Shown piece by piece: positions 31,751 to 48,827 of a stretch of 64,000 bases of DNA; the first letter of the stretch is position 1, and every line of letters begins with the position of its first letter. Made by a program: the position numbers and the translations under genes. The stretch spans positions 1-64,000 of the forward strand of contig JAKSYS010000127.1 of the NCBI GenBank assembly GCA_022925895.1, read 5' to 3'. Below the pieces are notes generated by a model, which worked only from the letters and a program-made list of their open reading frames with translations, was not told the origin of the DNA and made no database searches. The stretch comes from Fragilaria crotonensis (lineage: Eukaryota; Bacillariophyta; Fragilariophyceae; Fragilariales; Fragilariaceae).

Positions 31751-32186
31751 ATCCGCAAAGCTCTGCAAAACCTTGACGATGCACGAGGCTTGGATTCAAA
31801 AAAGGATTCGATTGTCGTTTTAGCACTGTAGGTAGGCGTGCAATGCGACGACAAGAAGTTTACGGTGACTGATGGTCAACACCGATGACAATAATTTGCA
31901 TAGGCGGAGAGGTATGTTGGTTGTTTGTTGCGTGGTTCGAGGCACGCGTTGGCGTCGTATACTCATGTCTCTAAATGTAGGATGACCACTCTCGAAAGAA
32001 AACTCATAAGACTGTCTTATAAACGTTGGAGATTCATGGCTGTGGCAATAGCAATCGTGACTTGGTCTCACAACAAAAACATCCCAGAGACACGACGAAA
32101 CTCGTAACGAATCGACTGCTCGGAAGCAGTCTGCAGTCTGTACTCGAGTAAAAAACAGATATGCGACAAAATGGAATGTCTTTCCT
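31751..32186. other. Spacer between gene B and the DIRS-like element
   Basis: No gene supported. It separates the upstream region of gene B from the left terminal repeat of the retroelement. Confidence 0.4.
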
Positions 32187-32343
32187 TGGCATGTCCGAAG
32201 ATCGGGAAAGGACGGGCAGTCGCCATCAGACAGACGAACACGAGACACAGACAGACGAACACCACGACACAACACAACACAAGATACGAATTGCTCACAA
32301 TCCGAACGAACTCGAATCGACAAAGACACTACTCTAGTTAATC
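32187..32343 (+). repeat. Split direct repeat A1
   Basis: 157 bp, beginning TGGCATGTCCGAAGATCGGG and ending CTCTAGTTAATC. It matches A2 at 38562-38718 without a difference that I can see, and forms the left end of the DIRS-like element. Confidence 0.9.
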
Positions 32344-32380
32344 TGGCCTCTCCCCCGACCCGACTTGAACCACAGACGCA

Positions 32381-35349
32381 ATGGAGGGGTCAGACGACGC
32401 TCGCTCACCGATGACGATGACCTTGACGTGGTTGGACGTTTTCAGGAAGCTCGACCAGTGGGAGGTCGTCGAAAAGCTCAGCGCTTTGAATTCGAAGACG
32501 AACTCGGTCAGTACAAATTCTACAGGATTCGTACACTTGTGCTCTCCGGAAGTCGCCCACCTTATGGTAAACACGCACGGAGTCATCCGACTCTTTCACC
32601 ACTTCCACCACGACGCTGACGATGGACTCAACGACGGGACGAACGCCCTTTGGGCACTGATGGGGCTGGCGGCTTCGCCGCCGCCATGGCGGTCGACACG
32701 AAACAGGTCGTAGAGCGACACATCGGAACGCCTTTTGATTGGTCGAGGATGCTCTCGTGGAATTCTACGTCGGACGTACTGGCGGCGATCAATGAATCTC
32801 TGACGACACGTGACCAGGTGCCAGGCGTCAGCACCGGAGCCACGCGCGAAGCCGAGCCAGCCGGCACCCTGCCGACTGCAACCAGAGGACGACCGAAGAA
32901 AGGAAGCGGAACGAAGCACCGGGCGAAGCCAAGCAAGCCAGTCGAAGCGAGCGAGGACGACACAGACGACGTCACGGTCGTCGGGTTCACGATAAACCCA
33001 CCGTCCCGGTGCCGGCCTTCATCGCAGCCGCCATCATGGACACTTACGTCACCGCGCCAGAGGAGCTCGCCCTACTGATCGTCAACGCCATTAAACAGAG
33101 AGCGAGCGAGGACCCAGACCCGTCCAGAGCAACCATCCGCGCGGAGGCAGCCTCTTACATCCCCGCGGTGGGTCCTCAGCGTAGCGGTAAACTCGAGGAG
33201 GACCCCGGGACCGACAAAGCGAGGGGTGGCGGCATCAAACGCATACTCCAAACGATCGGACGAATGGGCGAAATCGCTACACCTCAAGCATCTGGCGGTC
33301 AGAGCTAGGAGCCTCATTCGGACGGACGACCATGCCAGCACGCCAGGACGCACAGAGGACGCCATTCGAAACCTGTCAACGTTACTGGAGCGACAGGCAG
33401 CAAACGCAGCGACCTCGTCCCCCCAAACGTCGAAGACAGGCTTTGACTCTTTCCCGCCGTCGACGAAACGAATGGTCCTTTTCGTGTCCGAAAGGGACGC
33501 CGACAGGATGATTCGCAGCCGCCCGGTCCAGTCTTTCTCGGACATCCTGACGCTTAGCAACGTGGCCTACGTACAAAACCACATCCACCACTTCTTGAGG
33601 AACACCAAAGGTCGAGACGCGTTCATTCCCATGGGCTTCTGCGCCGCAATCCGCACCGCTTCTTTCACGGCCGACACACCTGACCGGCCAGGGGCCTTCA
33701 GCCTCTTCTGTTGCGGTCCCCAGACGTTCGCCCGAGCAGCAGCGATCGGGCGAGAAGCCTCTGATCACGCCAGCACCCTTGTGCAAATGCAACTCAAGAC
33801 GACCGACACGACCACGGGCTTCTCGGAGAAGGACATCAAGAGCATGACAAAACTCAACTTCACGGTGCCGAAAGATTTTCACGAACTCGCGCGGCTTATC
33901 GAGAACATGAGCGGAGTGCTGGAGCTCCTTTTCGGAGCCAATTCCCCGCTCACACACATGTTGGACGAGTGGAGCCGTTTCCTGACCAGGGCGGTCGGCT
34001 CCACACTGGCGACGCTCCGCCAGCTAGCGCACGCTGACCCCTCAGCCGCGTGCAGGTTAGGTTGGTTCATCGAAAAAAACGCATGCAACAATACCTAGTT
34101 CTCTGCGCTGGAGTCGAACACGAGGACGAGATCAACCCAGCACTCCTAGAATTCAGGTCCACCCGGCAGCAGTTGGAGGACGGCGCCTTTGTCTTCCCGG
34201 CCTGCGACTTCCTCAAGGAGCGGCTGGGACGTGGAGTCGACCAAAAAGGGCGACTCGCAGCCTGTAGCCGCCGCCGGGAGCGCTCGAGCCGGACGTCGCG
34301 GGCAACCCGCGGACGCAGTCACAAACCCACAGCAGGACCTTTTCCCGAGAGACGCGAACGACACTTGGCAGGTGTTCCTCGATCACGTCCGAAGTGGACC
34401 GATCCCGAACATGTGCTGCAGGTGGCACCTAAACGGGAAGTGCGTCAAGAGCTGTTTCTTGAGCGCCTCGCACGTCGCCCTCACGACCGAACAGACGACC
34501 GCCGTACGAGCGTGGATAGAGCAGTGCCGGGCGCGCATGCGCCGCCCCTCGTCCGACGCGACGCCGCCCAGCAAGAAAACAAAATTAGGACCCTCTGCAT
34601 CTGCTTACTTCCAGCCCGCCTTCGTCGCACAGCCGTCGCAATGGGCGTTCGACCAGGAACGGTCGACGGCCGAGTTCCACAACAGACGCCACGTAGGACG
34701 CCCCGGACTTTATCGGAATCTGCCGCCCGAGACAGTCCCGCGGGAACCCACGCGCACGAACCTTCTCGCCCCCGCCACGTCGCCGACGCCCCGCATCTCT
34801 CGCCAGCCCGCGACGACCCGTCACGAAACGAAGTCGGGCCTGGAGCGCTACGCTCCCGCCCTCGACTCGCCACCGACCGACCACTCCGTGGCGCGCGCAT
34901 TGTCGCCCGGAGACGCCCACGACGCGCCGACATCAGCCCTCGCAGACACGCCACGCCCGCTTCCCGGTAAGTTCCCATCGTTGGTGCCATTGCCGACGAT
35001 CCCGCTCCCGAACGTCGACTCGCCGTTCCCACGACTCCCCGAACCACGCCTGGCCGATGCCCTTGCCACTATTTTGCACTCCGGCCAACCGCGCACCCAC
35101 GCGACGGAGTTTCGCTTCGACTGGACGCACGACGCCGCCCGCCACAACCTCGCGGTGCTCAAACGGTACGCCCTCGACCTCGACGCCGCCCTTCGGGCCC
35201 AGCCGTTCAGCGCCCTGACGCCGGGATCCGAGTTTCGCCCCACCGAACTTCTCGCCCCGCTCCTGTCCGCCCACCCCCTCTGGCCGCGTTTTCAGGAGCG
35301 CATCTCCGAAGGGGCCGAGTTCCCCGCTTCGCGAGATCTCGGATTCTGA
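32381..35349 (+). mobile_element. DIRS-like element: gag-like part
   Basis: Open frames in this span encode basic and helical segments with no enzyme motif. Near 34.4 kb there is a small Cys/His cluster (CCRWHLNGKCVKSC), followed by a proline-rich, highly charged tail. Position upstream of the reverse transcriptase and the Cys/His cluster support a nucleocapsid-like role. G+C content is higher than in the surrounding host DNA. Confidence 0.6.
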
Positions 35350-35362
35350 CCGCCTCGCGGAC

Positions 35363-36907
35363 GTGCGCGCCAACTTAGCTCGCGGCAATCACAAATCGGC
35401 CCGAGGCCACGAGGCAAAGTTGATATCCATGCTGAAGGACGAAGCCTCAAGGGGTTGGCAGCTACCACTGCCGCGAGAAGCCGCCTTAGAGATCAAGGGA
35501 TGCGAGGTCGCGCCTCTGGGGATGGTCGCGCAGACGTCGATCGACGAGAAAGGAAATTCAATAGAGAAACTCCGACTGACACATGACCAGTCATTCAGCC
35601 CGAGCGGAGTGGCAGGACGAAGCGTAAATGAACGCGTGGACACATCCCAACTGACAGAAGCACGTTTCGGAAAAGCATTCAGCAGACTCATGTACCACAT
35701 CTCGTTCCTGCGCCAACTATGGCCAGACGAGCCTATCTGGATGACGAAGGTCGACTGCAAATCCGCCTACAGACGAATCCATCTCAAAGCAGCCACAGCC
35801 ATGAAGTCCTGCACGAGTATCGACGACCTGCTGTTAGTGGCGCTGAGGATGACGTTCGGTGGAGCGCCAAACCCATCGCAATGGAGCGACGTGTCGGAGA
35901 TGATCACGGACTTGGCAAACGACCTTGTCCGCAGGGACGACTGGGATCCGAGCGTCTACCACTCGCCGCACCAGCACCTCCTGGACACCGAAGGGGCAGT
36001 GGACAATGACAAAGGGTCGGTCGACAAAATGAGTGTTTTCGGCAAGGCGGACTACTTCGCAGTGAACTATCCACCCTACGACGACCTCCCTCGCTTCGAC
36101 TGCTACCTGGACGACATTTTTGGGGCCTTCAACCCCCGCGACGCAGAAAAGAGCGCTGCCGCGATCCCGCTGGCGCTCCACCTGGTCGGGAGGCCTTGCG
36201 ACCCCGAGGTTAAGGAGACTTTTCCCAGAGACGATATCCTTGCGATCCCAAAGTTCCTGGCCGAGGCCAAACCATCCGAGAGGAAGATGATCCTCGGATG
36301 GATCGTGGACACACGCCGCTTCGTCGTCGCACTGCCTCACGATAAGCACATGAGCTGGACGCAAGCCGTTGACAGGATGCTGACGCACAGACATGCCTTC
36401 GTGACGACGAGAGACCTAGAGACGACCCTCGGACGTTTTAGCCACGCCGCCTACGTCATCCCTTACGCAAGACACTTTATGGGAAGGCTATACAAGGCCT
36501 GCGAGCGTTCGAAGCAGGCCGGGAAGGCGAGACTGACCAAACCCCAACTGGACGACCTGATTCTGTGGAAGGCTTTCCTTCAGAAGGCGTCGCGAGGTAT
36601 CTCGATCAACAGGCTGGTTTGCCGGTGGCCGACGCGCATAGTGAGGGTGGACGCATGCCCACAAGGCATCGGAGGCTACTGCCTCAAGAGCGGCCTGGCG
36701 TGGCGATATCAGCTACCAGAGCACCTGCTGGGGCGAGCGACCCTAAACACTCTCGAGTTCCTTGCTGCCTTTGTGGGGATGATCGTGGAATTCCACGAAG
36801 GGGCCGCGTGGACGGACGAAGACGTTCTGCTCAGTCAGGAGACAGCACCTCAGCAGCGGGATGGCTTGCTAAGTCGAACTTCAACGACGATTGTCCGCTT
36901 CACCTGA
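35363..36907 (+). mobile_element. DIRS-like element: reverse transcriptase and RNase H part
   Basis: The reverse transcriptase region shows TKVDCKSAYRRIHL, a LRMTFGGAPNPSQW segment and the FDCYLDDIFGAF active-site block. Downstream, RIVRVDACPQGIGGYC and LNTLEFLAAFVGM fit the RNase H-like domain of DIRS elements. This is the best conserved part of the element. Confidence 0.82.
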
Positions 36908-38195
36908 CGATAGCCCGAGCGTTCGCTGATTTCTGCCTCACGCACGAGATAGACCACTACACGCAGTGGTTCCCGGGAAAGAGAACAAGGTGGCGGACAT
37001 GCTCTCGAGATTTCGCTCTAGACGACGCGGCACTGACAGACTTGATCACGAAAAACTGCTCACCGTTTGTTCCACAGAACTTCAGGATCATCCCTTTGCG
37101 GCCAGCCCTTATTTCGCAGATTGGAGGCTGGCTGCAGCTGCTGCCCAAAACGCAGCTCTTGCCGACTCAACCCGTGCCAAGCGCGATAGCAGCTGGCGCT
37201 GTTACGAAAGATTCCTCGGACGAATCGACGGAGTCGGGAGGGAGCCTTTTCTCCAAGGACTCGGACGAGAAGCGAAAGCAGAAACGTTCGCCTGCTTCGC
37301 CGCCGCCCTTCGGGACGGACGGCTTCGCTCCCGACAACCTCAGGAAGCTGGCAATGGACCCTTGTCCGGTTCCATTCGTGCCACCCTCGACGGTGTGGCT
37401 CAGGCCTTCAGGCTTAACAAATTTGAGAGCCCAATCCACGACGCCGCCGGACGACTCGACCCCTTCTGGCTTTACAACTGAAACGTTACGCCGACGAGGA
37501 CCCAGGACCTACCCACAGCAGGCGCTGCCGTTAGAGGTGATTCGAAAGGTTCGATCCTGGGCAAGAAACGAGACGGACATCGCTATTGGACAACTTGTGG
37601 TGGTCGCGTTCTTTTTCGCCATGAGGTCGTGCGAATATTCCGATGTCGGAAGCCGACGGACGACATCAGTGATCAGAGTGGACGACGTTCGTTTCCGACA
37701 GAAGGGACAGGACCTGCAGACAACCGACCGAGGACAACTGGAGAATGCCGACACCGTGTCGATCACCTTCCGGCGACAAAGAACGGGGACAAAGGCGCGA
37801 CAGTGACTCAGCATCGAAACGACAGGCAGGGACAAACGGACATCTGCCCCGTCCGCGTGCTAGCGGACCTGACGACGAGGGTACGGAGTTACGATTGCCA
37901 TTCACGGACGAACCCGAAGATTAACGCCGTCAGGACGCAGGACTCAGACGAACCCCAACACATCTCTTCCAAGTCCATACTGAGGCAGCTCAGGATGGCG
38001 ACGACTCTCGCAGGGAGGAGAGGCTTGGCCTCCAGGCGAGTGGCATCGGCACTCACTCGATCAGATCAGGCGCCGCGATGGCCATGCACCTCGCCGGAGT
38101 TCCAAGTGAGACGATTCAGATGGTGGGGAGGTGGCGAAGCCAGACGTTCATGAGATACCTCCGAATTCAAGTGCCGGACTCGACACTCGGGTAGC
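36900..38195 (+). mobile_element. DIRS-like element: tyrosine recombinase part
   Basis: A segment near 37.5-37.8 kb resembles the central part of phage-integrase-like recombinases (IGQLVVVAFFFAMRSCEYS). The region at about 38.05-38.17 kb carries the conserved C-terminal box with the SGAAMAMHLAG and MVGRW pattern. Such recombinases insert DIRS cDNA through a circular intermediate. Confidence 0.75.
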
Positions 38196-38268
38196 CGCAC
38201 GCATGACGAGTCGACAATCTTTCTACACGATCGCCCCAGATTCTGCGGACGAACGACAACCGGAAAAT

Positions 38269-38561
38269 GGCGGAAACCAGGTCGACTCACAATCGCGCGA
38301 CGGACCCCGCTAGATAACTATCACGGGACCGACACCGCGAGACGAACCAGGAGAGAGACAAAACTATTAGGACCAGATTCCGATGCCATCTATTTATTTC
38401 TACTAGTCTCACGAGCACAAAGAGAAACGAGAATGACCACAGACAACACACGAATCGACGCGACAGTGCGCGAGACAACGGTACGACGAAACCACGAAGC
38501 AGACGACTCATCCGACTAAACGGACTTAGAGAAATTTGGACAAGACTCGGAATTTATTTCG
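38269..38561 (+). repeat. Split direct repeat B1
   Basis: About 293 bp, beginning GGCGGAAACCAGGTCGAC and ending AATTTATTTCGTG, directly joined to A2. It matches B2 (38817-39105) except for a few length differences in short runs. Confidence 0.9.
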
Positions 38562-38718
38562 TGGCATGTCCGAAGATCGGGAAAGGACGGGCAGTCGCCA
38601 TCAGACAGACGAACACGAGACACAGACAGACGAACACCACGACACAACACAACACAAGATACGAATTGCTCACAATCCGAACGAACTCGAATCGACAAAG
38701 ACACTACTCTAGTTAATC
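38562..38718 (+). repeat. Split direct repeat A2
   Basis: Second copy of A1, joined directly to B1 on its left and followed by a 98-bp linker (38719-38816) with a GGCGCC palindrome. Confidence 0.9.
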
Positions 38719-38816
38719 CCACCCACCCACACCTCCTCTCCTGGCCCGATGCCTAGGTTCATCGGCGCCCCTGGCGCCGGTTACCTCCTGGCCATGCTCT
38801 GCATGGGGCGGAAACC

Positions 38817-39105
38817 AGGTCGACTCACAATCGCGCGACGGACCCCCGCTAGATAACTATCACGGGACCGACACCGCGAGACGAACCAGGAGAGAGAGAC
38901 AAAACTATTAGGACCAGATTCCGATGCCATCTATTTATTTCTACTAGTCTCACGAGCACAAAAGAGAAACGAGAATGACCACAGACAACACACGAATCGA
39001 CGCGACAGTGCGCGAGACAACGGTACGACGAAACCACGAAGCAGACGACTCATCCGACTAAACGGACTTAGAGAAATTTGGACAAGACTCGGAATTTATT
39101 TCGTG
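38817..39105 (+). repeat. Split direct repeat B2
   Basis: Second copy of B1, forming the right end of the DIRS-like element. Host sequence resumes at TGAAAGAAATAG. Confidence 0.9.
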
Positions 39106-41405
39106 TGAAAGAAATAGCGCTGCGCCTCATGGGGAACAATGTTTTGAAATGGCACCAGAAGCAAATGATTCTGTCACGGTCATTTATGTTTGTTATAGTT
39201 TAGAAATATAGAAGATTCTACTTGGATGACTCTGGTGAGGCGAAACCCCTCAGAAAAACTACGACTACCAAGTTCGTTCTTCGTTCGGTTTCTTTAAGAA
39301 ATATTTTATCAATGACTTTCTCAATGTGTGACGATATACAGTGTATATATCAGCGAACTTTTTTCATCTCGCATCGCGTTCTGCGCAGACGTTTTTTTTG
39401 TGTCCCGTTTTCCGTCACCATGTTCATTCTGTACACATAACCCATCCATTCCTGAATCAACTTTGATGTTCGAGTGCGCCTTGGGACTGGGGACTCAAAA
39501 CAGCAACGTCACGTTGACGAAACAAAGAGACCTTTCCTATATATGATACATGGCTGGTGGCTGGTTCATTGCCCATTTTCATTTGCCTTTGTTGTCACCA
39601 ATGGCAGTGGATAAAATTATTGTCTCACCATTTGATTCAACTTGCAGAACAAGTCCGATAGGCTACCCATCATCGCACTGCGCGGTCCTGTTTTGGAATT
39701 ATAAAGGTAGGATATGCATTTCTGTCACTCCTATGGACTCAATCACACACTTGTTCACTAGGAACCCTTGAGATTCTTTCTTGAAGAAATCTACCTGCAT
39801 CTGTGGAACAGGAAATGGCTTGCAAATGTATTGGGTGAGAGTCCTCCACCATTCCCAATGAATCTTTTTCAGTAGTAGTAGCCTATACTATTTCTTCAAT
39901 CCTCATGCGTCCGCTGTCAAATAAGTCATTGCGACTGCATTTTCTGACTTGGGTTCAATAGTTGTTGATATTCGATCACTTTGTTCACCAAAATTATTTG
40001 ATTCTTTTCTTTCCTTTATTTCCATGGCAAGCATGTCTTCATCCTTCTTCAATGAAAAGTTGCTGTTTCTCCTTGAAGTGTCATCAAGACAACACGGCCT
40101 TCCATTTCAATTATCTCTTTACCTGAGTAACAAATGTCAATTTTCAGCTCCTTTAACACATTGCAAGCAAGTATAGCATCACATCAACAAACATTTTTGG
40201 TATTGTGTACCCAAGCTTTCAGGTAATGACAATAAATAAAGCGTCGTGACATACGATTTACACATCATGTCAGAGCCACCAAGCGGCATCCTCGCTCGTT
40301 GTTCTATCGGAGGAGAAATGGTTATGGTTCCCTTTGGCAGTTTATATTTCTCTTCACAAATGAATTAGTGCTCCCAATTTGTTGGCTGTTGACTAATCTC
40401 CTCCTGCATAATTGTGCAGGGAACCGATCCTTTCCCATTCGGATTCTCTTGTTTTTCTTGTTACCATAAAACAATTCACATGAAAACCATGCATGCTCAC
40501 ACAAACTATATACTCCACCTAAAGTTGGTTGCGACTCCTTATAACCATTGTTCTGTGATTCTCAGTTCCATTTAGGAGTCCCACCATTGGTCAAGAAATA
40601 GTGATCATGACAACTTGTTTTGATCGTGGACTCCTTGCAACATTCCCCGCTGTTGTTACGATTACGTTTGTGTTGGAGTCATTCTTTGACTGCCATTCCC
40701 ATCATTGTTTTAATAATAAGTGGTGTCCTTGCACCTTGAAACATTTCCTCAACCCTGGAATTGTTATTCTTGCCTAGGTTGCCTGTCCTTGGCCGGCAAT
40801 TGTCACCGTTGGGACTAAGAAAGCATTCTCACTTCTCGAACCTTGAACCATTTCGTCGACCCTGGAATTGATATTCTTGTCTGGGTTGCCTGTTCTTGGC
40901 CGGTAATTGTCCCCATAGTAGGGATTAAGAAAGCATTCTCGCTATTTGTGTCTGACATGAATAGCAGGGCAAGGCTCCTCATTCTGAGTTCGACGATGAT
41001 TGCTGCCTGTCATTTCTGCCACCACTCCAATTGTGACAGCTGAGCACGCCTTTTTTAAACAGGTCCACTCAAGTTGCAATACATGCTATCCAAAGAAAGA
41101 AACAGTAGAAGTGGTATTTGAAACCTTCCAAGTCCTCTTTCATCTCTGATCAGAAAGCGCAACCTTGAAGGAAAAAAGTATACGAAGACCGAAACCCTCC
41201 TGCTTCGAACACAATTGCGCGCAGATCGAAGTCCATCGTGACTCATGATGACTCATGACTCATGACCATCAAAGCGACACGCACGGAATTCCTTGGTACG
41301 GGCAATAGCGACCAGAGGTCGCTTTTGCAAGAGTGCGCGAAGCGTAACGGTCGCGAACACCTTTAAGTAAAAAAAGATTGTATGTAACTAGACTTGCGAA
41401 TGGTG
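39106..41405. other. Intergenic, probable old element remnants
   Basis: No intact gene. Around 40.3-40.6 kb the minus strand has short protein-like stretches rich in H, C, N and K that could be remains of an old gag-like region, but they are too decayed to name. A two-copy 107-bp tandem repeat lies at 40734-40948. Confidence 0.3.
40734..40948. repeat. 107-bp tandem duplication, two diverged copies
   Basis: Both copies share CCTTGAA, CCCTGGAATTG, GGTTGCCTGT, CTTGGCCGG and AAGAAAGCATTCTC at the same offsets. They differ at roughly one position in seven, so the duplication is old. Confidence 0.75.
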
Positions 41406-41508
41406 TTGCACCCAGATGAGTTGACTACCTGAGAATTTACATGGTGCATCCTTGATTGGTAAGGATCCCCCACTTAAATTTTGAGGTAGTCAACTTGTCT
41501 GGGTGCAA
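41406..41508. repeat. Imperfect palindrome, 33-bp arms
   Basis: TTGCACCCAGA with AGTTGACTACCT at 41406-41438 is repeated inverted at 41476-41508, with about four mismatches in 33 bases and a 37-bp loop. It lies about 270 bp upstream of the first cassette gene, and could be a small fold-back element, an end of a larger element, or a regulatory hairpin. Confidence 0.7.
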
Positions 41509-41680
41509 AAGTAGGTTTTAGGCTTCAAGTGGGTAGGTCATAATATTCCGACGAAAATGTCCGGCTCAAAACCTGATAGAGACGTGCAATGAACGTAGAG
41601 GTCATTTCAGAATTCTCACGGTTGCAGAGCAAAAAGATTTTGTCGTTACCCTCCATCCATGGGACGAGATTACTTCTGAA

Positions 41681-44600
41681 GTGTGTGATTGTGATCATCT
41701 CCCCCACTCGTACCCTCATCCCCAAAAGCCGCTTCTGGTACCGTTACAATATCTTCAGCAGGCATCGCAAAAAGGGATGGTTCAAACACGATCTGGAAAT
41801 GTTGTTATTCACACGGAAGCTTCGTATGGACGAGCAGCGAGGAGCGAATCGTCAAGGAAGCGCCGGAAAAGAAAGGCAGAAAATGATCAGAATGCAGCAA
41901 ATGCGACAACACCAAGGAGACGGGCACCTACAAGATCACAAATTCAATATGATGAGGCATTAGCAACTCCTCCCGGTGCATCTGCTAGGGTTGGAAGCAC
42001 CCCATCGCCCAACAAGACTGATCGAATTCTACGAGGTACTACAAGAAAACCACGATGCTCCGACTTTGGAAAGACACGTCACTTTGCATTTCATGGTCAA
42101 GGATTCATGTTCTGCAATGCCTGTGATTTGTGGGATGCTCTCCCACCTGATGCAACCAATAAAGTGTCAATTGATTCGCTCAAGTTTGGTTGCACTGCCA
42201 ATCATACCTACTTCTCGCATCCGACTACACTCCGGAAACAAGACTGTTATATACGACGAAAGAGGAAAGTGGTGATCCCCATACTCAACGTGCAACGCAG
42301 GGTTGTACCAAACTATGGTGTTGCCTTCAACGAAGAATCGGATTCTTCTTTCGCATCAAGTTTTGATGGTGAGGTTGTTGTAGTTGATCAAGGTAATGGC
42401 GGCAGCAGTGCACACCACAATAACAACAATTCTCGCACGACGACAACAAGTTCAACCGATGACCCAAGTGACAACGACGACAATCAACCAATCCTTGGAA
42501 GCTCAACTACAAATGCGATGCCGATGGATGTGATAGCTACTACCACAGCAGGTGTCGGCTCTTCTATCACTGATGTTGAGAGCAGTCTGCTGAATGTACA
42601 ACAGCATGCACTAGTGGTCGAACAACTTAAAGGTAAGATTGCGTTGCTGCAAGAAAGGAATGATCGGCTAGTCAGAGAAGTCAAAGCCCTACAATGCAAA
42701 GTAATGAAACATAACGCAACGACAACCGATGAGGGTGCTACTGTTGGTGCACTTTCCACCAGCAGTCGGAACGAGAGCTTCACGCAACAAGTTCTTGCAG
42801 CCTTGAATGGTGTCCTGCAAAAGCATCGACGCTGGAGTGCAAATCGAGTCGGTGCTTTAGTTGCAAAAGCTGTTTGGAATCATGACACGTATCTTCCACA
42901 TCTGCTTCGGCATGCTCGCAAACATTTGCGAGAAAAGGTCTTCACTACTTACAATATCCTACGAGAAATGGATCTCGCTGGAGGCACGCTCTCCTACGAA
43001 GGAATCGAAGTGTTGAGACGTGTGGAGACATGCGGTGTGAAGAGATTCCGAGGCTCAATGATACCATCAAAGTCTGAGCTTAAACGAATGGCTGGAGTTG
43101 TCGAATGGTTTGCAAGAGAGCATTGCCCATTCGAATTACAGCAAACCAAAAAGGGTGAGTCGGTTCAGTTCAATTATGGGAAGGCAATGTTGTGCATAAC
43201 GCAAGCATTCCACCTGGATACGATTGGAAAATTGCGAAGCTTATCGATCGCATCCTCAATTGATGGGGCCTCACTGTCAAAGAATCTTTCAGTCATTGCT
43301 GGGGGGATCAAGATTACTGACCGTGCTGCTCGGTGTCCAATAACATGCAGACCTTTGCTTGACAATCCGTGTACAATGAGTGCACAGTCTCGGAACCTTT
43401 GCATTCCATTGAAGATCATGATGGGGCGGGAGACCAAGGAAACCTTTGTTGAATTCGGTTCCCTTTCAAGTTTCTTGACAATCTTGCCGATGAAGCAACT
43501 ATTCCTCCCGAGATGGCAGGATTTCTACCTTTCTCGTGCATGACCAACTGTGACCTGTCAGCACAGTGGAAGGGTTTGTGCAAAGGTGGTGCGGCAAAGA
43601 TTCATACACTTCCTTGCACTGGGTGTGCAACGGAGTCAGATGAGTTAGCCACTCCAAACCCAGAACGTTGCACAAGATGGTGCATCGAGCATTCCATTGA
43701 CCCAGATTGGCTTTGTTATCACAAGCCTATGGCGACGCCCGAGAGAGTTGTTGCAATGCAGGCTGAAGTTGAGGAACTTGTATCGACACTAGAGAGGGCT
43801 CTCATTGAGATTCTTGCCGAGTCAAAAGTTACTCGCCACGATATTGAACTCGACACTCCACCAGAAAGTTCGGTCAACGACAATGCCTCCATCCACTTTT
43901 GCCCCAACAGCGCAAGTCAGAGGCACTCATTTTCTCGTTTACTAACAAATGAACTGATTCTGCGAGGGCTCGACATCAACGGAAGCTTGGAAATCAGGCG
44001 AGAAGGATTAAGAGTTGCTCTCAAAGGTGAAGCAACGATAGTTAGGCTTTCGAAAGAGATTGCTCATGGCGAGGTTAAGGAAGGAGCCTACTTTCTACTG
44101 ATGCAGAGGTGAAGCAACGATAGTTAGGCTTTCGAAAGAGATTGCTCATGGCGAGGTTAAGGAAGGAGCCTACTTTCTACTGATGCAGACTCTCCCGTGT
44201 GTGCTTCACATGGAGAATCGAAATGGCATAAAGATTCTCTCGATGCTGCTTGTTGAAGGAATGTCAAATGCAAAAAAGCGGCTTATATACAATGATGTCA
44301 AGGCTGAGGGTACGAGAGTAACTCGTTTCGTTACAGACATGGAAGATATAATCAATCGATCAATATTAGGAACAGACGAAGACCCGTGTCAATGGATGTG
44401 CCCATTTGATTTCCAGAAAAAGGAGCTTGGTCCCATAACCATGGACAATGTTCGAACTCGACGTATCATCGATGCACTTGATCTGATTGTGGATCTTTGT
44501 GTGATAGATGACGCTCGCAAAGCGCGATGGATGACAGGACTTAACCATTACAGGATTGCTATGGTACTACTAAGAAAGAAGGAGGATTTTACGAATGACA

Positions 44601-45001
44601 TGATTGCATCGTATCAGAGTCATGCCGACAAATTCTACCAGGCATGGCTTCAGCTTTGGCAAAAGGAGGGTGTAACAAATTATCTTCATATGATGGGGTC
44701 CGGTCACATCGCTGACTATCTCTACAAGTGGAAGAATCTCTATCGCTTCTCGCAGCAAGGCTGGGAGGCGATGAACTCACTCATCAAGACATTCTTCTTT
44801 CGACGAACTAGTCATGGTGGCGGCGTTCGGGGAGCTGGCAACAAGAAGTCTCGGCTTATTCCAATAGCACGATGGTTACAAAGGCGGATGATATTTCTTT
44901 GTCGCATCGACGAAAGTGTGATCCATCAATACACAGCAGATCATCCTATGCCCGAGGGTTTCTGCACACAAGCATCATCACAAGATGATGTATACGACTA
45001 A
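41681..45001 (+). CDS. Large conserved-looking protein of unassigned, possibly transposon-derived family
   Basis: The likely start is the ATG at 41777 (MVQTRSGNVVIHTEAS), since the upstream extension is poor. A basic KRRKRK stretch is followed by a Cys/His segment (CSDFGKTRHFAFHGQGFMFCNAC), a low-complexity N/T/S region, and a coiled coil (LKGKIALLQERNDRLVREVKALQ). A large globular part follows, with IASSIDGASLSKNLSVIAGGIKI, LSAQWKGLCKGGAAK with nearby Cys pairs, TLPCVLHMENRNGIKIL, and GSGHIADYLYKWKNLYRFSQQGWEAMNSLIKTFFFRR. I recall similar large proteins as dispersed families in algae and invertebrates but cannot name the superfamily, and no DDE triad is certain. The reading changes frame once near 43.46 kb and again across an exact 82-bp tandem duplication at 44.0-44.2 kb, which may be an intron. 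An intact protein would be about 1,050-1,100 residues. Confidence 0.6.
44025..44188 (+). repeat. Exact 82-bp tandem duplication starting with AGGT; candidate newborn intron
   Basis: Copies 44025-44106 and 44107-44188 are identical by eye. Each begins AGGTGAAGC and ends CTACTGATGCAG. The coding frame before the first copy and the frame after the second differ by one, as 82 is not a multiple of three. Splicing from the GT at 44027 to the AG at 44107-44108 would remove exactly 82 nucleotides and rejoin the two frames. A CTGAT branch-point-like word lies just before the acceptor. The alternative is a plain duplication error in the cell or the assembly. Confidence 0.85.
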
Positions 45002-45045
45002 CGAGAAGCACTATACTTCTACCTGAATTTTATCTTAGCCTGAAT

Positions 45046-46405
45046 TCAATCAACACCTTTGTTGTGTTGCGGATAACAACACTTAGCGCAAACGTAAGTA
45101 GCATGTATGCTTACCACTCGGTAGAGACATCCGTCGTGATCCTCAAACTCACTCCCGTTCATGATCATTCCTTGGTGATGATCCTCCTGCACCACATCCT
45201 CGGGATCACAGGGATATGGATTGCAACGATGAATCAATGAAGACAACAGTGGATCACATTCCTCAGTCGCAACAAGACCTCTTCTTGAAGAATACGTGAA
45301 TCGCCTGTATCGAATGGTTATGAACAATTCATTACATCCGTCAAATTCCAGATCGATGCCATCGCGAACAGTCTTGGAATTAAAGCCAGGTTCGTGGTCA
45401 TCAGAACCACAGACCACGTTGATGATGTCATTCTGCCACAGGCTTTTAGGTGCTGATATTTTGGGCAGTCGACATCGCTGCCCTGCAGTTGTTGATTCTC
45501 CAAAACATAACAGAGATGCTGAAGATGAGCCTTTGTCTCGAATCTTAGAATGGTGCAGCGCTTACTAACTTGAGCAGCTTTAACAACCAACCCACTTTCG
45601 ATAACTCTATGCCGTCGGGTTCGAGATGAAACTCCACAGCCAGCAGCATCAAAAATGTTGTCGAACTGTAATCGAAGAAACCCCCATGCCTCGGCGGTGA
45701 AATTTGACAAGCGACAGACTTCTTTTCCATAAAGTCCTTGTTGGTGTGAATATCGTCCTAGTAACCTCGTCATCTCCAGCTTCACACAGATCACGCTATT
45801 CCACATCCTACTGGGAAAACAATCATGGTATCGTGAGTTTTGGTAGCTTGATGGAAAAGGAAGGCAGCAGTTGTCCGGCAGCTTGATTAGAATCGGTTGA
45901 TCATTTCCGAGGTGGGACCGATACCTTACTACAAACGCGAATGTCATTCCCTGACAAGTGTAGAAAAGATTGCTGGTATCCTGCAGCGATGCCATGGTAA
46001 ACACGAATGCCAGGTTCATTATCTCATCACTTGAAATTGTTCGAATCTCTTGTGTCTGCACAATTTCGGCTAGATGCCGTAGATGATTTTCATCCAGCAA
46101 TCTTGGATGCAAAAGCCTTCTGTCGCTGAAAAGTCATTCAATCGCTTGAATATATTCACTTGGACTGAAGTTCTGCTTGATGGCAGGCTGGTTTCTGCAC
46201 CAACAATTCTCGCCACTGTCATACAAGCATCCTGACTTCTGGTTTCAATGCTCGTGTTTCGTGGTGCCAGTAGCACAAATGTACCTGGCAGAAGATCCGC
46301 CTTGAGTGTTCGGCTGTAACATGCCATTGGAACTTCGTTTTGCTCGCAATGGGGCTCAACCCTGTCCCAAGAAAAGGAGCCGGCTGGAACTGCTGCGGTG
46401 ATCAT
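45046..46405 (-). CDS. Hypothetical protein, convergent with the large cassette gene
   Basis: Unrecognised. The N-terminal part (from 46405) reads as a structured protein (SFSWDRVEPHCEQNEVPMACYS...LPGTFVLLAPRN). The middle (45318-46112) has HLRHLAEIVQTQEIRTISSDEIMNLAFVFTM. The C-terminal part (45046-45417) has FDGCNELFITIRYRRFTYSS and ends with a Cys/His-rich tail (HATYVCAKCCYPQHN). Two frame changes (near 46.1 and 45.45 kb) link these parts. Both fit a single missing base in a short T or C run. The total is about 440 residues. The stop codons of this gene and of the plus-strand cassette gene are only about 50 bases apart, so the two are tail to tail. The shared location suggests one accessory unit, which is inference. 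Confidence 0.45.
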
Positions 46406-46906
46406 GATGGTGAGTAGCTGACACCTTCGACGTTCTCCTTGTTGGAGGTGAACTCGAGAAGGGTGCGATGGTCTCTATTATGTAACAGACCAGCACTTCA
46501 TAAGAAAAGACGTTATCCATCTGAAAGAATTTACTTACGCAAGAACTGTTTACATGACGTTACAAATAATTCAGATTAAATAGTAAACCAGTAAGAAGTA
46601 AGTAAACACGACATCGATAATTATTCAGATGCATATATCAACATAGAGTGCCTAACCTGAAATGGTCGAGACATCCGGAAAAGTCATGAGGGCCCTTGGT
46701 CGCTATTCCTACAGTAGCTAGTACCAGGTAGTTAATAAAACTCATGGGTTCACCAACAGCACCAGCATCATCGTCAACACGCAGCTCATACACAACGTTA
46801 ACAACTGTCAAACTATTTGTAGATGTGGTCGAGGCTGAAGAACAACAGAGAGCAGCTATTCTCAAGAAAGGTTTACTTTTTGTTCTCATAATAGAGTGTA
46901 CTCTCA

Positions 46907-47551
46907 ATGACACGGACTGCACACGGCATGACCATGGTGTTGGGCAGAAATTTATATTCTTCAGAGTTCTGCATCATCCGACTTATGCCTGTCATGTTCT
47001 TGAATCGAACAATCCTCAGTATGGCCAGAATTTTCTGTGAAGATACCGTCATATTGACAAGAGCTCAGCAGGCTACGATTGAACAACAAACCTGCTCTCA
47101 TTTTGCCCGGAGACTGATCTGCACCATGCGTCGCATGTCCGATCCGATTTTTTCAATTGAAGAAGGGAATGTCATGCATTACATCACAATTCGACACTAC
47201 AATCATCACACAGAATCGCTCTTGTTCCTTATTGGAATGCAATCCGTGGTGGTGTTTGAAAGCCCTATAGCGTCAGTTTCTCGATATTTCCCACGCATCA
47301 ATCAACCTTTTACTTGTACTGACATTCCACATATCATCCGCAAGCAACAACCCCAGTTTGCTTTGGGTCAACGTCGTGGTATCGAATATGCCAGTTGTGG
47401 AAATCCAAGCCGATGCAAGGAGTATAACGGTGTCCGATTGCTACACTCGGGTAACAAATGGGTGTTGAGTGCCACGCACAATGAGCCACTCCCTCCAATA
47501 TTTCCGGTAGTAGACCAGATACTTCAGAAAGGAAACAACAAATATCCCTAG
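46907..47551 (+). CDS. Hypothetical protein of the 41-48 kb cassette
   Basis: About 210 residues, divergent from the minus-strand gene ending upstream at 46405. The region from about residue 45 (EDTVILTRAQQATIEQQTCSHFARRLICTMRR) onward looks like a real protein, with YITIRHYNHHTESLLFLIGMQSVVVFE and a Cys-containing end. The N-terminal 40 residues are doubtful, and an upstream exon may exist between 46.6 and 46.9 kb. No family is recognised. Confidence 0.35.
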   Translation: MTRTAHGMTMVLGRNLYSSEFCIIRLMPVMFLNRTILSMARIFCEDTVILTRAQQATIEQQTCSHFARRLICTMRRMSDPIFSIEEGNVMHYITIRHYNHHTESLLFLIGMQSVVVFESPIASVSRYFPRINQPFTCTDIPHIIRKQQPQFALGQRRGIEYASCGNPSRCKEYNGVRLLHSGNKWVLSATHNEPLPPIFPVVDQILQKGNNKYP

Positions 47552-47842
47552 TTTCGGTATGCATTGATTTGCTCCGCACATGTGACGGAACAGAGGTCAA
47601 AGACCACAAATCTGGATCGTCTTGGGAGGCATACAATGGAAGCTCCAGCAAACACGGAGGACACGACTTGCACTGCCATTGGCATATAGCTGAGTTGTCT
47701 TTGCTGTCTTGAACCCTCGAGACGGTGGCTAATCAGTTCGAGATAATTGCACTAACAGGTATACTTCCCTTTCCCTTCGATTCTTGAACAGGTGGCAATT
47801 TTCAAGAGGTTGACGCATTGATCGGCTTCAAAATTTCGTTCA

Positions 47843-48244
47843 TCAGTTCCTTCTAAACTCTGTATTTGACTGGGACTGGCAAAAGACCTTGCGCTTCGAT
47901 TCGACCGTCGTGTTGAGATGCATGTACCAGAGGACAAAGTTGGTGCAATCAAGGCGCCAGACACTAGAGATATCGGCAATAATGTTGAATAAGGTTCGAA
48001 GGACGGGCGCTGAATCGAACTTGATGTAGGGACGTGTATCATCTCTACGGATATCCGAAAGTTCTACCGCTCTACCGCTAGTTAGCAACACCTTCTGATC
48101 GAGGGGCATCCGCAAAATCTGCATTTTAGTTGTCCACATAACCACGCAGAAGTGCGTTTCCGGATTTTTCTTGGACTCTGGAGTATTATTTGAAGATTTG
48201 AAGTACTCCGAGTACCACAGTACTAGAGTATACTCGAGTACCAA
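47843..48244 (-). CDS. Possible small hypothetical protein
   Basis: 133 residues with a mixed, protein-like composition (TPESKKNPETHFCVVMWTTKMQILRMPLDQ...FNIIADISSVWRLDC). No family, signal peptide or membrane segment is seen. The 5' part overlaps GTAC-rich DNA, so the first 15 residues are doubtful. It may be chance. Confidence 0.2.
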   Translation of the reverse strand: MVLEYTLVLWYSEYFKSSNNTPESKKNPETHFCVVMWTTKMQILRMPLDQKVLLTSGRAVELSDIRRDDTRPYIKFDSAPVLRTLFNIIADISSVWRLDCTNFVLWYMHLNTTVESKRKVFCQSQSNTEFRRN

Positions 48245-48336
48245 CTGGCTCGGTCATTGCAGTTATTGGTTGCACATTGGCCGTTAATATTCGTGCTGTG
48301 ATTGTAGTAAAATTTGTGTGAATGGGGAAACAAGTC

Positions 48337-48629
48337 TGAAAATGACCCCAAGACATTGCTCCCCACAATTTCAAGTTTCAATCGCATAGAATCATGTTCG
48401 TCGCCTTCGGCAAGCTCAAAGATACACCACAACCGCATTGTAACGCACTATAGATACGTGGTATGCTGGGATTTGTGAAAAAACCGAGCTCTCGTAGTTT
48501 ACATACTTCTCACGCTGTAGAATTTTTACATTCGGACAAACAAAGCTAAAAATGACCCCAACCTCAATTTCAATCGCATGTAGTATCATCAATATTGCGT
48601 AGCATTTTCGTTGCCTTCCTAACGCACAA
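48337..48629. repeat. Degenerate direct repeat upstream of the 48.8-kb gene
   Basis: Two stretches (about 48337-48450 and 48547-48629) share AAAATGACCCCAA, CAATTTCAA, CAATCGCAT, TCGTTGCCTTC or TCGTCGCCTTC, and TAACGCAC in the same order. They may be a duplicated promoter segment of the following gene or an old repeat. Confidence 0.45.
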
Positions 48630-48827
48630 AGGAAGTGGCTGCCAAATGTGCATAAGTATCATTGCATTTGCACCAATCGGAATCCGTAGAGAGGTCATCA
48701 TTATGGCATTAGTTGTCAAAAACAGAAAATGATGACGTCAAAGCTGATTCGATCGGTGAAACTGCTTCATAGGCGCTTTTAATGCGAAGTACATGAGCCA
48801 TTTTCTGCAAAGAAAATTACGGCCGCA

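What the first reader, a model, noticed from the sequence alone, without database searches (positions are those of the whole stretch)
44025..44188. Candidate spliceosomal intron born by tandem duplication of an AGGT segment
An exact 82-bp tandem duplication lies inside a long coding region. The unit starts AGGT and ends CTACTGATGCAG. Splicing from the GT of copy one to the AG at the start of copy two removes exactly one unit (44027-44108) and links the two reading frames, which differ by one because 82 is not a multiple of three. Intron creation by tandem duplication of an AGGT-containing exon segment is an established model, but fresh cases with identical copies are rare. The length fits short diatom introns (80 and 113 bp are inferred elsewhere in this window). 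A fresh duplication without splicing, or an assembly artefact, remains possible.
Basis: partly seen in the sequence, partly recalled or inferred. Interest (0 to 1): 0.8.

Follow-up and report, generated by a model that had tools for sequence, protein, structure and literature searches.

The report
Small duplication in a transposon copy
An 82-base stretch is present twice in a row in one copy of a repeated mobile element in an alga-like genome; sister copies have it once, and it looks like an ordinary recent duplication (or possibly an assembly error) rather than a newly born intron.

Summary
In detail: 44025-44106 and 44107-44188 are an exact 82-bp tandem duplication, and removing 44027-44108 would join the two frames. 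The intron reading is weakly supported. The window lies in a 62.1-Mb eukaryote-like assembly that I could search. The segment belongs to the long gene of a ~5.4-kb dispersed element (41303-46707). Of 20 other loci fetched (27 other contigs matched), none shows it twice: 18 show it once, one in part, one does not reach it. The duplication is private to this copy and derived. Sites were scored against 20 introns inferred from this genome. The donor lacks the +5 G found in 19 of 20. Exact excision needs a GAG acceptor (0 of 20), two bases after a much stronger CAG; use of that CAG gives an 80-nt intron and a frameshift. The same donor/CAG pair exists in a single-copy sister, inside coding sequence. 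About 21% of all possible 82-bp duplications in this gene would offer an exact AG|GT excision. The frame from the gene's start already stops at 43541-43543. Most likely: a young tandem duplication in a decaying transposon copy. Assembly error cannot be excluded; no RNA data were available.

The parts
41303..46707 (.). Dispersed ~5.4-kb element that holds the finding; ends AATAGCGACCA (from 41304) and TGGTCGCTATT (to 46707), 11-bp inverted termini; no target-site duplication recognised by eye
   Evidence: Five other copies 99.3-100% identical per long aligned piece, whose matches stop at or within about 10 bp of these ends, except L010, which differs left of 41656
41537..43543 (+). First part of the element's long gene (668-codon open frame); its frame stops at 43541-43543
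   Evidence: continuous with the later parts in copy L009 (1127 codons)
43453..44112 (+). Second part of the gene in a shifted frame; runs through copy one and stops at TGA 44110-44112 just inside copy two
44025..44106 (+). Copy one of the 82-bp tandem duplication
44107..44188 (+). Copy two of the 82-bp tandem duplication (1-bp microhomology with 44189)
44027..44108 (+). Proposed 82-nt intron (AAG|GTGAAG ... TGCAGAG|GT): donor 3.98 bits, GAG acceptor 1.92 bits
44027..44106 (+). Competing 80-nt GT...CAG pair (acceptor 7.88 bits); leaves +2 nt and a stop; the same pair is 80 nt apart in single-copy L009
44102..45001 (+). Third part of the gene, downstream of the duplication
   Evidence: conserved with relatives
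45046..46133 (-). Second, convergent gene of the element, frame-broken here (ORFs 45046-45561 and 45318-46133); one 490-codon frame in L009

Best explanation
A recent tandem duplication of 82 bp, with 1-bp microhomology at its breakpoint, arose in one copy of a dispersed two-gene mobile element of this genome. [quoted passage not shown] Shown: the duplication, its absence from the sister copies examined, the stop, and the coding nature of the segment in relatives. Inferred: slippage or microhomology-mediated end-joining as the cause, and no efficient exact splicing. If the spliceosome acts here at all, the sequence predicts mainly the 80-nt GT...CAG excision, which does not restore the frame.
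For: Exact duplication with 1-bp microhomology. Of 20 other loci fetched (of 27 other contigs with matches), none shows two copies: a motif of the unit occurs once in 18 of 20, L024 matches once in part by tblastn, L018 does not reach it; overlapping BLAST pieces agree. In 14 of the 20 loci the whole unit reads through as protein without stop or gap; L027 and L028 match up to or near its end, L011 and L026 are frame-broken within it, L024 is partial, L018 lacks it. The window copy also has a private 44-bp loss at 45058 and 1-bp losses at 45501 and 46110, and shares a frame break near 43463 with some copies. Splice sites against 20 inferred introns: donor weaker than 18 of 20, +5 G in 19 of 20 but absent here; acceptor position -3 is C/T/A/G in 13/5/2/0, and G here; CAG at 44104-44106 scores 7.88 against 1.92 for GAG. 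Of all 3136 possible 82-bp duplications in a coding stretch of L009, 663 (21%) allow exact AG|GT excision and 166 (5.3%) score at least as high.
Against: The length is typical of this genome's introns (5 of 20 lie in 76-80 nt, one is exactly 82 nt). The combined score of the exact pair (5.9 bits) is not outside the range of inferred introns: 3 of 20 score lower; only 5.3% of possible duplications score as high, so it is somewhat better than a random one. A pyrimidine-rich stretch precedes the acceptors. No RNA was available, so absence of splicing is not shown. The 1-bp lesions may be base errors of the assembly, in which case the gene could be intact up to the duplication.
Confidence: 0.77

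Rival explanations
1. Newborn spliceosomal intron: the duplicated AGGT supplies GT and AG, and the spliceosome removes exactly one unit (44027-44108, or 44074-44155), making the duplication silent.
For: Exact excision joins the frames; length within the genome's range; combined score above 3 of 20 inferred introns and matched by only 5.3% of possible 82-bp duplications; mechanism is established elsewhere (passages of PMC4974935, and PMC2891723).
Against: GAG acceptor (0 of 20) behind a stronger CAG two bases upstream; donor without +5 G; the second AGGT pair scores -0.77 (donor) and -6.38 (acceptor). The same donor and CAG lie 80 nt apart in single-copy L009, in a stretch that reads as protein in 14 of 20 loci, which argues against efficient use. 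The copy is otherwise damaged. 21% of possible duplications here would qualify on AG|GT alone.
Confidence: 0.06
2. Assembly artefact: an unmerged overlap or a wrong join inside a repeat family with near-identical copies left 82 bp twice.
For: Seen in one of six near-identical copies. The assembly shows many small gaps: among the six close copies (from 41656 on) one search lists 16 indels of 1-2 bp against 7 substitution columns (one search shows two more), and two conserved chaperonin (PF00118) genes show a one-base frame break (C238, C485, my reading of the frames).
Against: A single exact 82-bp duplication is not a typical base-calling error; no second exact case of period over 40 outside a repeat array in 259 kb; no N in these sequences. 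Not testable without reads.
Confidence: 0.15
3. Cryptic splicing with a different outcome: the strong CAG is used (80-nt or 162-nt intron from 44027), giving frameshifted transcripts.
For: GT 44027 with CAG 44106 scores 11.9 bits, above 7 of 20 inferred introns.
Against: 8 pairs of 60-170 nt score at least this high in 3258 bases of L009 coding sequence, so the score is not specific; the pair lies in coding sequence there.
Confidence: 0.02

Closest known systems
[quoted passage not shown] ATP2A1/ATP2A2 of Hellsten et al. 2011, both as summarised in passages of PMC4974935; Drosophila cases in passages of PMC2891723)
   Same: Coding segment with AG|GT duplicated head to tail; excision of one unit would restore the protein; derived state relative to relatives.
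   Different: No evidence of splicing; acceptor is GAG behind a CAG; host is a damaged mobile-element copy, not a conserved host gene.
Short microhomology-associated tandem duplications (general mutation class; recalled)
   Same: Two exact copies, 1-bp microhomology, young, inactivating.
   Different: Nothing seen that sets it apart.
Terminal-inverted-repeat DNA transposons (general class; recalled)
   Same: Dispersed near-identical copies with shared ends and short inverted termini, two genes.
   Different: No Pfam match over its cut-off for either protein of L009, no PDB match better than E 0.68 for the long one (the short one was not tried), no target-site duplication recognised; superfamily not assigned.

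Membership tests
Spliceosomal intron born by tandem duplication | Tandem duplication of an exonic AGGT segment, derived relative to relatives | tested here: met
   two copies in the window, in none of 20 other loci fetched (27 other contigs matched)
Spliceosomal intron born by tandem duplication | Exact excision of one unit restores the reading frame | tested here: met
   for the frame entering copy one; but the frame from the gene's start stops earlier, at 43541
Spliceosomal intron born by tandem duplication | Functional splice signals at exactly these borders | tested here: inconclusive
   donor low in range, GAG acceptor unseen in 20 inferred introns, better CAG two bases upstream; combined score above 3 of 20
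Spliceosomal intron born by tandem duplication | Transcripts lacking one unit | not testable with these tools
Tandem duplication mutation | Exact adjacent copies, single copy in sister sequences, breakpoint with little or no homology | tested here: met
Assembly artefact | Not present in single DNA molecules | not testable with these tools
   no reads available
DNA transposon with terminal inverted repeats | Dispersed copies with common ends in unrelated flanks and inverted termini | tested here: met
   the flanks of the window copy give no other full match in the assembly (self only; self and five partial matches of 65-73%)
DNA transposon with terminal inverted repeats | Recognisable transposase and target-site duplication | tested here: inconclusive
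   no Pfam match over its cut-off, no significant PDB match for the long protein; no target-site duplication seen by eye in the flanks

The most novel reading that the evidence does not exclude
A just-born intron caught in a mobile element: one of six near-identical copies carries an exact 82-bp AGGT duplication that is spliced out as one unit, with five sister copies that have the segment once as ready-made ancestral controls in the same genome.
Probability: 0.05. Interest if true: 0.6.

Novelty: already known. Interest (0 to 1): 0.13.

Why it matters
Proven recent intron gains are few (PMC4974935, abstract and passages). If spliced, this would be one with identical copies and five sister sequences as ancestral state. 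As it stands it is mainly a caution: an AG|GT-bearing duplication alone is weak evidence, since about a fifth of all possible 82-bp duplications in this gene would satisfy it.

Tried and rejected
Allelic copy: searches with both flanks (46712-48750; 39300-41298) found no second copy of the locus (one search gave only five partial matches of 65-73%), so no empty or unduplicated allele could be compared. Relatives in viral contigs: none confirmed. Pfam and PDB: no match over cut-off or significant. A trend of similar duplications: in 259,418 bases no other exact case of period over 40 outside a repeat array; a looser TRF listing gave 11 rows, mostly repeat arrays; L009 7978-8146 (period 90, 1.9 copies, 96%) and L027 5616-5843 (period 114, 2.0 copies, 91%) are the nearest in kind and were not followed up. 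Dating by the identity of the two halves: rejected as uninformative, since the whole copy has only 3 private substitutions in 41660-46705. Splice model: 24 gaps between exon matches were fetched (L029-L052), chosen by eye (contributed none); 20 were used. Dropped: L030, L037, L038 (near-duplicates of L029, L035, L039) and L047 (no clear intron). Borders were set by hand from protein continuity, so they are inferences, and 20 is a small training set.

Full report
What was checked. The units 44025-44106 and 44107-44188 are letter-identical; TRF gives period 82, two copies, 100% match. One further base matches, so the breakpoint has 1 bp of microhomology. Unspliced, the frame through copy one ends at TGA 44110-44112; removal of 44027-44108 opens 488 codons. 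The unit contains a second AGGT at 44072 that allows another exact excision.

Where it lies. The window is part of a 62.1-Mb, 881-contig assembly. A 2-kb query around the finding matched 27 other contigs; I fetched regions of 20 of these. Five of them (L009-L013) carry near-identical copies, 99.3-100% per long aligned piece over 41303-46707, with common ends and unrelated flanks; L010 differs left of 41656, and L013 lacks about 380 bases at 43109-43488. The ends are inverted, AATAGCGACCA and TGGTCGCTATT. The element bears a long forward gene and a convergent gene; both are single open frames, 1127 and 490 codons, in L009. Fifteen more diverged loci (65-77% in the pieces) carry the same long gene or parts of it. 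Neither L009 protein has a Pfam match over its cut-off, and the long one has no PDB match better than E 0.68.

Polarity. No other fetched locus has the segment twice. A protein motif for the unit occurs once in 18 of the 20 fetched loci, and twice in the window; L024 matches once in part by tblastn; L018 does not reach the unit. The other 7 matching contigs were not fetched. In 14 of 20 loci the whole unit reads through as protein; L027 and L028 match up to or near its end, L011 and L026 are frame-broken in it, L024 is partial, L018 lacks it. The duplication is thus derived and, as far as seen, private to the window copy.

State of the copy. Between 41660 and 46705 the window copy has 3 private substitutions, 3 private deletions and 1 private insertion, the duplication itself. 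The deletions are a 44-bp loss at 45058 and 1-bp losses at 45501 and 46110. The same count for the others is: L009 0/0/0, L010 1/2/0, L011 0/2/0, L012 0/0/0, L013 1/3/0. Near 43463 the window also has a 1-bp frame break seen in some other copies, so that the frame from the gene's start stops at 43541-43543, before the duplication. These 1-bp differences must be read with care. From 41656 on, one search lists 16 indels of 1-2 bp against 7 substitution columns (one search shows two more), and two conserved chaperonin genes of this assembly show one-base frame breaks (my reading of the translated frames). Some may be sequencing errors.

Would it be spliced? I inferred 20 introns from protein-family matches (24 fetched, 4 dropped as told under Tried and rejected). 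They measure 64-166 nt, median about 89, and one is 82 nt. Donors have G at +5 in 19 of 20; acceptors have C, T, A, G at -3 in 13, 5, 2, 0 (from the contexts printed). The proposed donor AAG|GTGAAG scores 3.98 bits, above 2 of 20 leave-one-out scores. The proposed acceptor (GAG) scores 1.92, above 5 of 20. The CAG two bases upstream scores 7.88, above 15 of 20. The pair sum for the exact unit, 5.9, is above 3 of 20; the pair to the CAG, 11.9, above 7 of 20. So splice signals are not absent, but they point to the CAG, which gives an 80-nt intron and a stop after 196 codons of the read-in frame, against 488 for exact excision. Single-copy L009 has the same donor and CAG 80 nt apart inside its 1127-codon frame, which argues that the pair is not efficiently used; I did not test this pair in the diverged relatives. 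Such scores are not specific: 8 pairs of 60-170 nt score at least 11.86 in 3258 bases of L009 coding sequence.

How special is the AGGT? Of all 3136 possible 82-bp duplications in that L009 stretch, 663 (21%) permit an exact AG|GT excision and 166 (5.3%) do so with a score at or above the observed one. The coincidence is mild.

Literature. Passages of PMC4974935 describe the AGGT model of Rogers, the experimental ATP2A2 reproduction by Hellsten et al., and that proven recent gains are few; the same paper notes that nearly identical regions can be assembly errors. Passages of PMC2891723 score proto-splice sites much as done here. For other papers I saw only search listings. The search for diatom cases (diatom, intron gain, tandem duplication) found 38 papers; of the 12 listed no title announces such a case, and I opened one (PMC2891723). 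I make no claim that none is in print.

Verdict. A real feature of the assembly, correctly described, but best explained as an ordinary young tandem duplication in a damaged mobile-element copy, with assembly error as the main rival. Exact splicing remains possible and is decided by RNA reads.

Noticed in passing
41303-46707; L009-L013; diverged relatives L014-L028: Dispersed 5.4-kb element family with 11-bp inverted ends, two convergent genes (1127 and 490 codons in L009), no Pfam match over cut-off and no target-site duplication seen: possibly an undescribed transposon family.
   Followed up: partly
G000 C238:4110-4260 (L053) and C485:5190-5345 (L054): Two chaperonin (PF00118) genes show a one-base frame break at the same profile position (92/93); read as likely base errors in the assembly, since the local DNA differs.
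   Followed up: partly
45058: A 44-bp segment present in the close copies (42 bp in L009) is missing in the window copy, with 3-bp microhomology (TTG) at the joint.
   Followed up: partly
L039 (C238) and L038 (C430): An inferred chaperonin intron contains tandem repeats of a unit of about 23 bases (GAGAGCAATGTGAAGTTTCCGAA) and a TACTAAC sequence like a branch site.
   Followed up: no
41406-41453 and 41461-41508: 48-bp, 83% complementary inverted repeat with a 7-bp loop near the left end of the element.
   Followed up: no
32182-39105: Stretches of 40-145 bp near 38269-38563 recur at 38807-39105, and 32182-32343 recurs at 38557-38718 (99%): may be terminal repeats of another mobile element.
   Followed up: no
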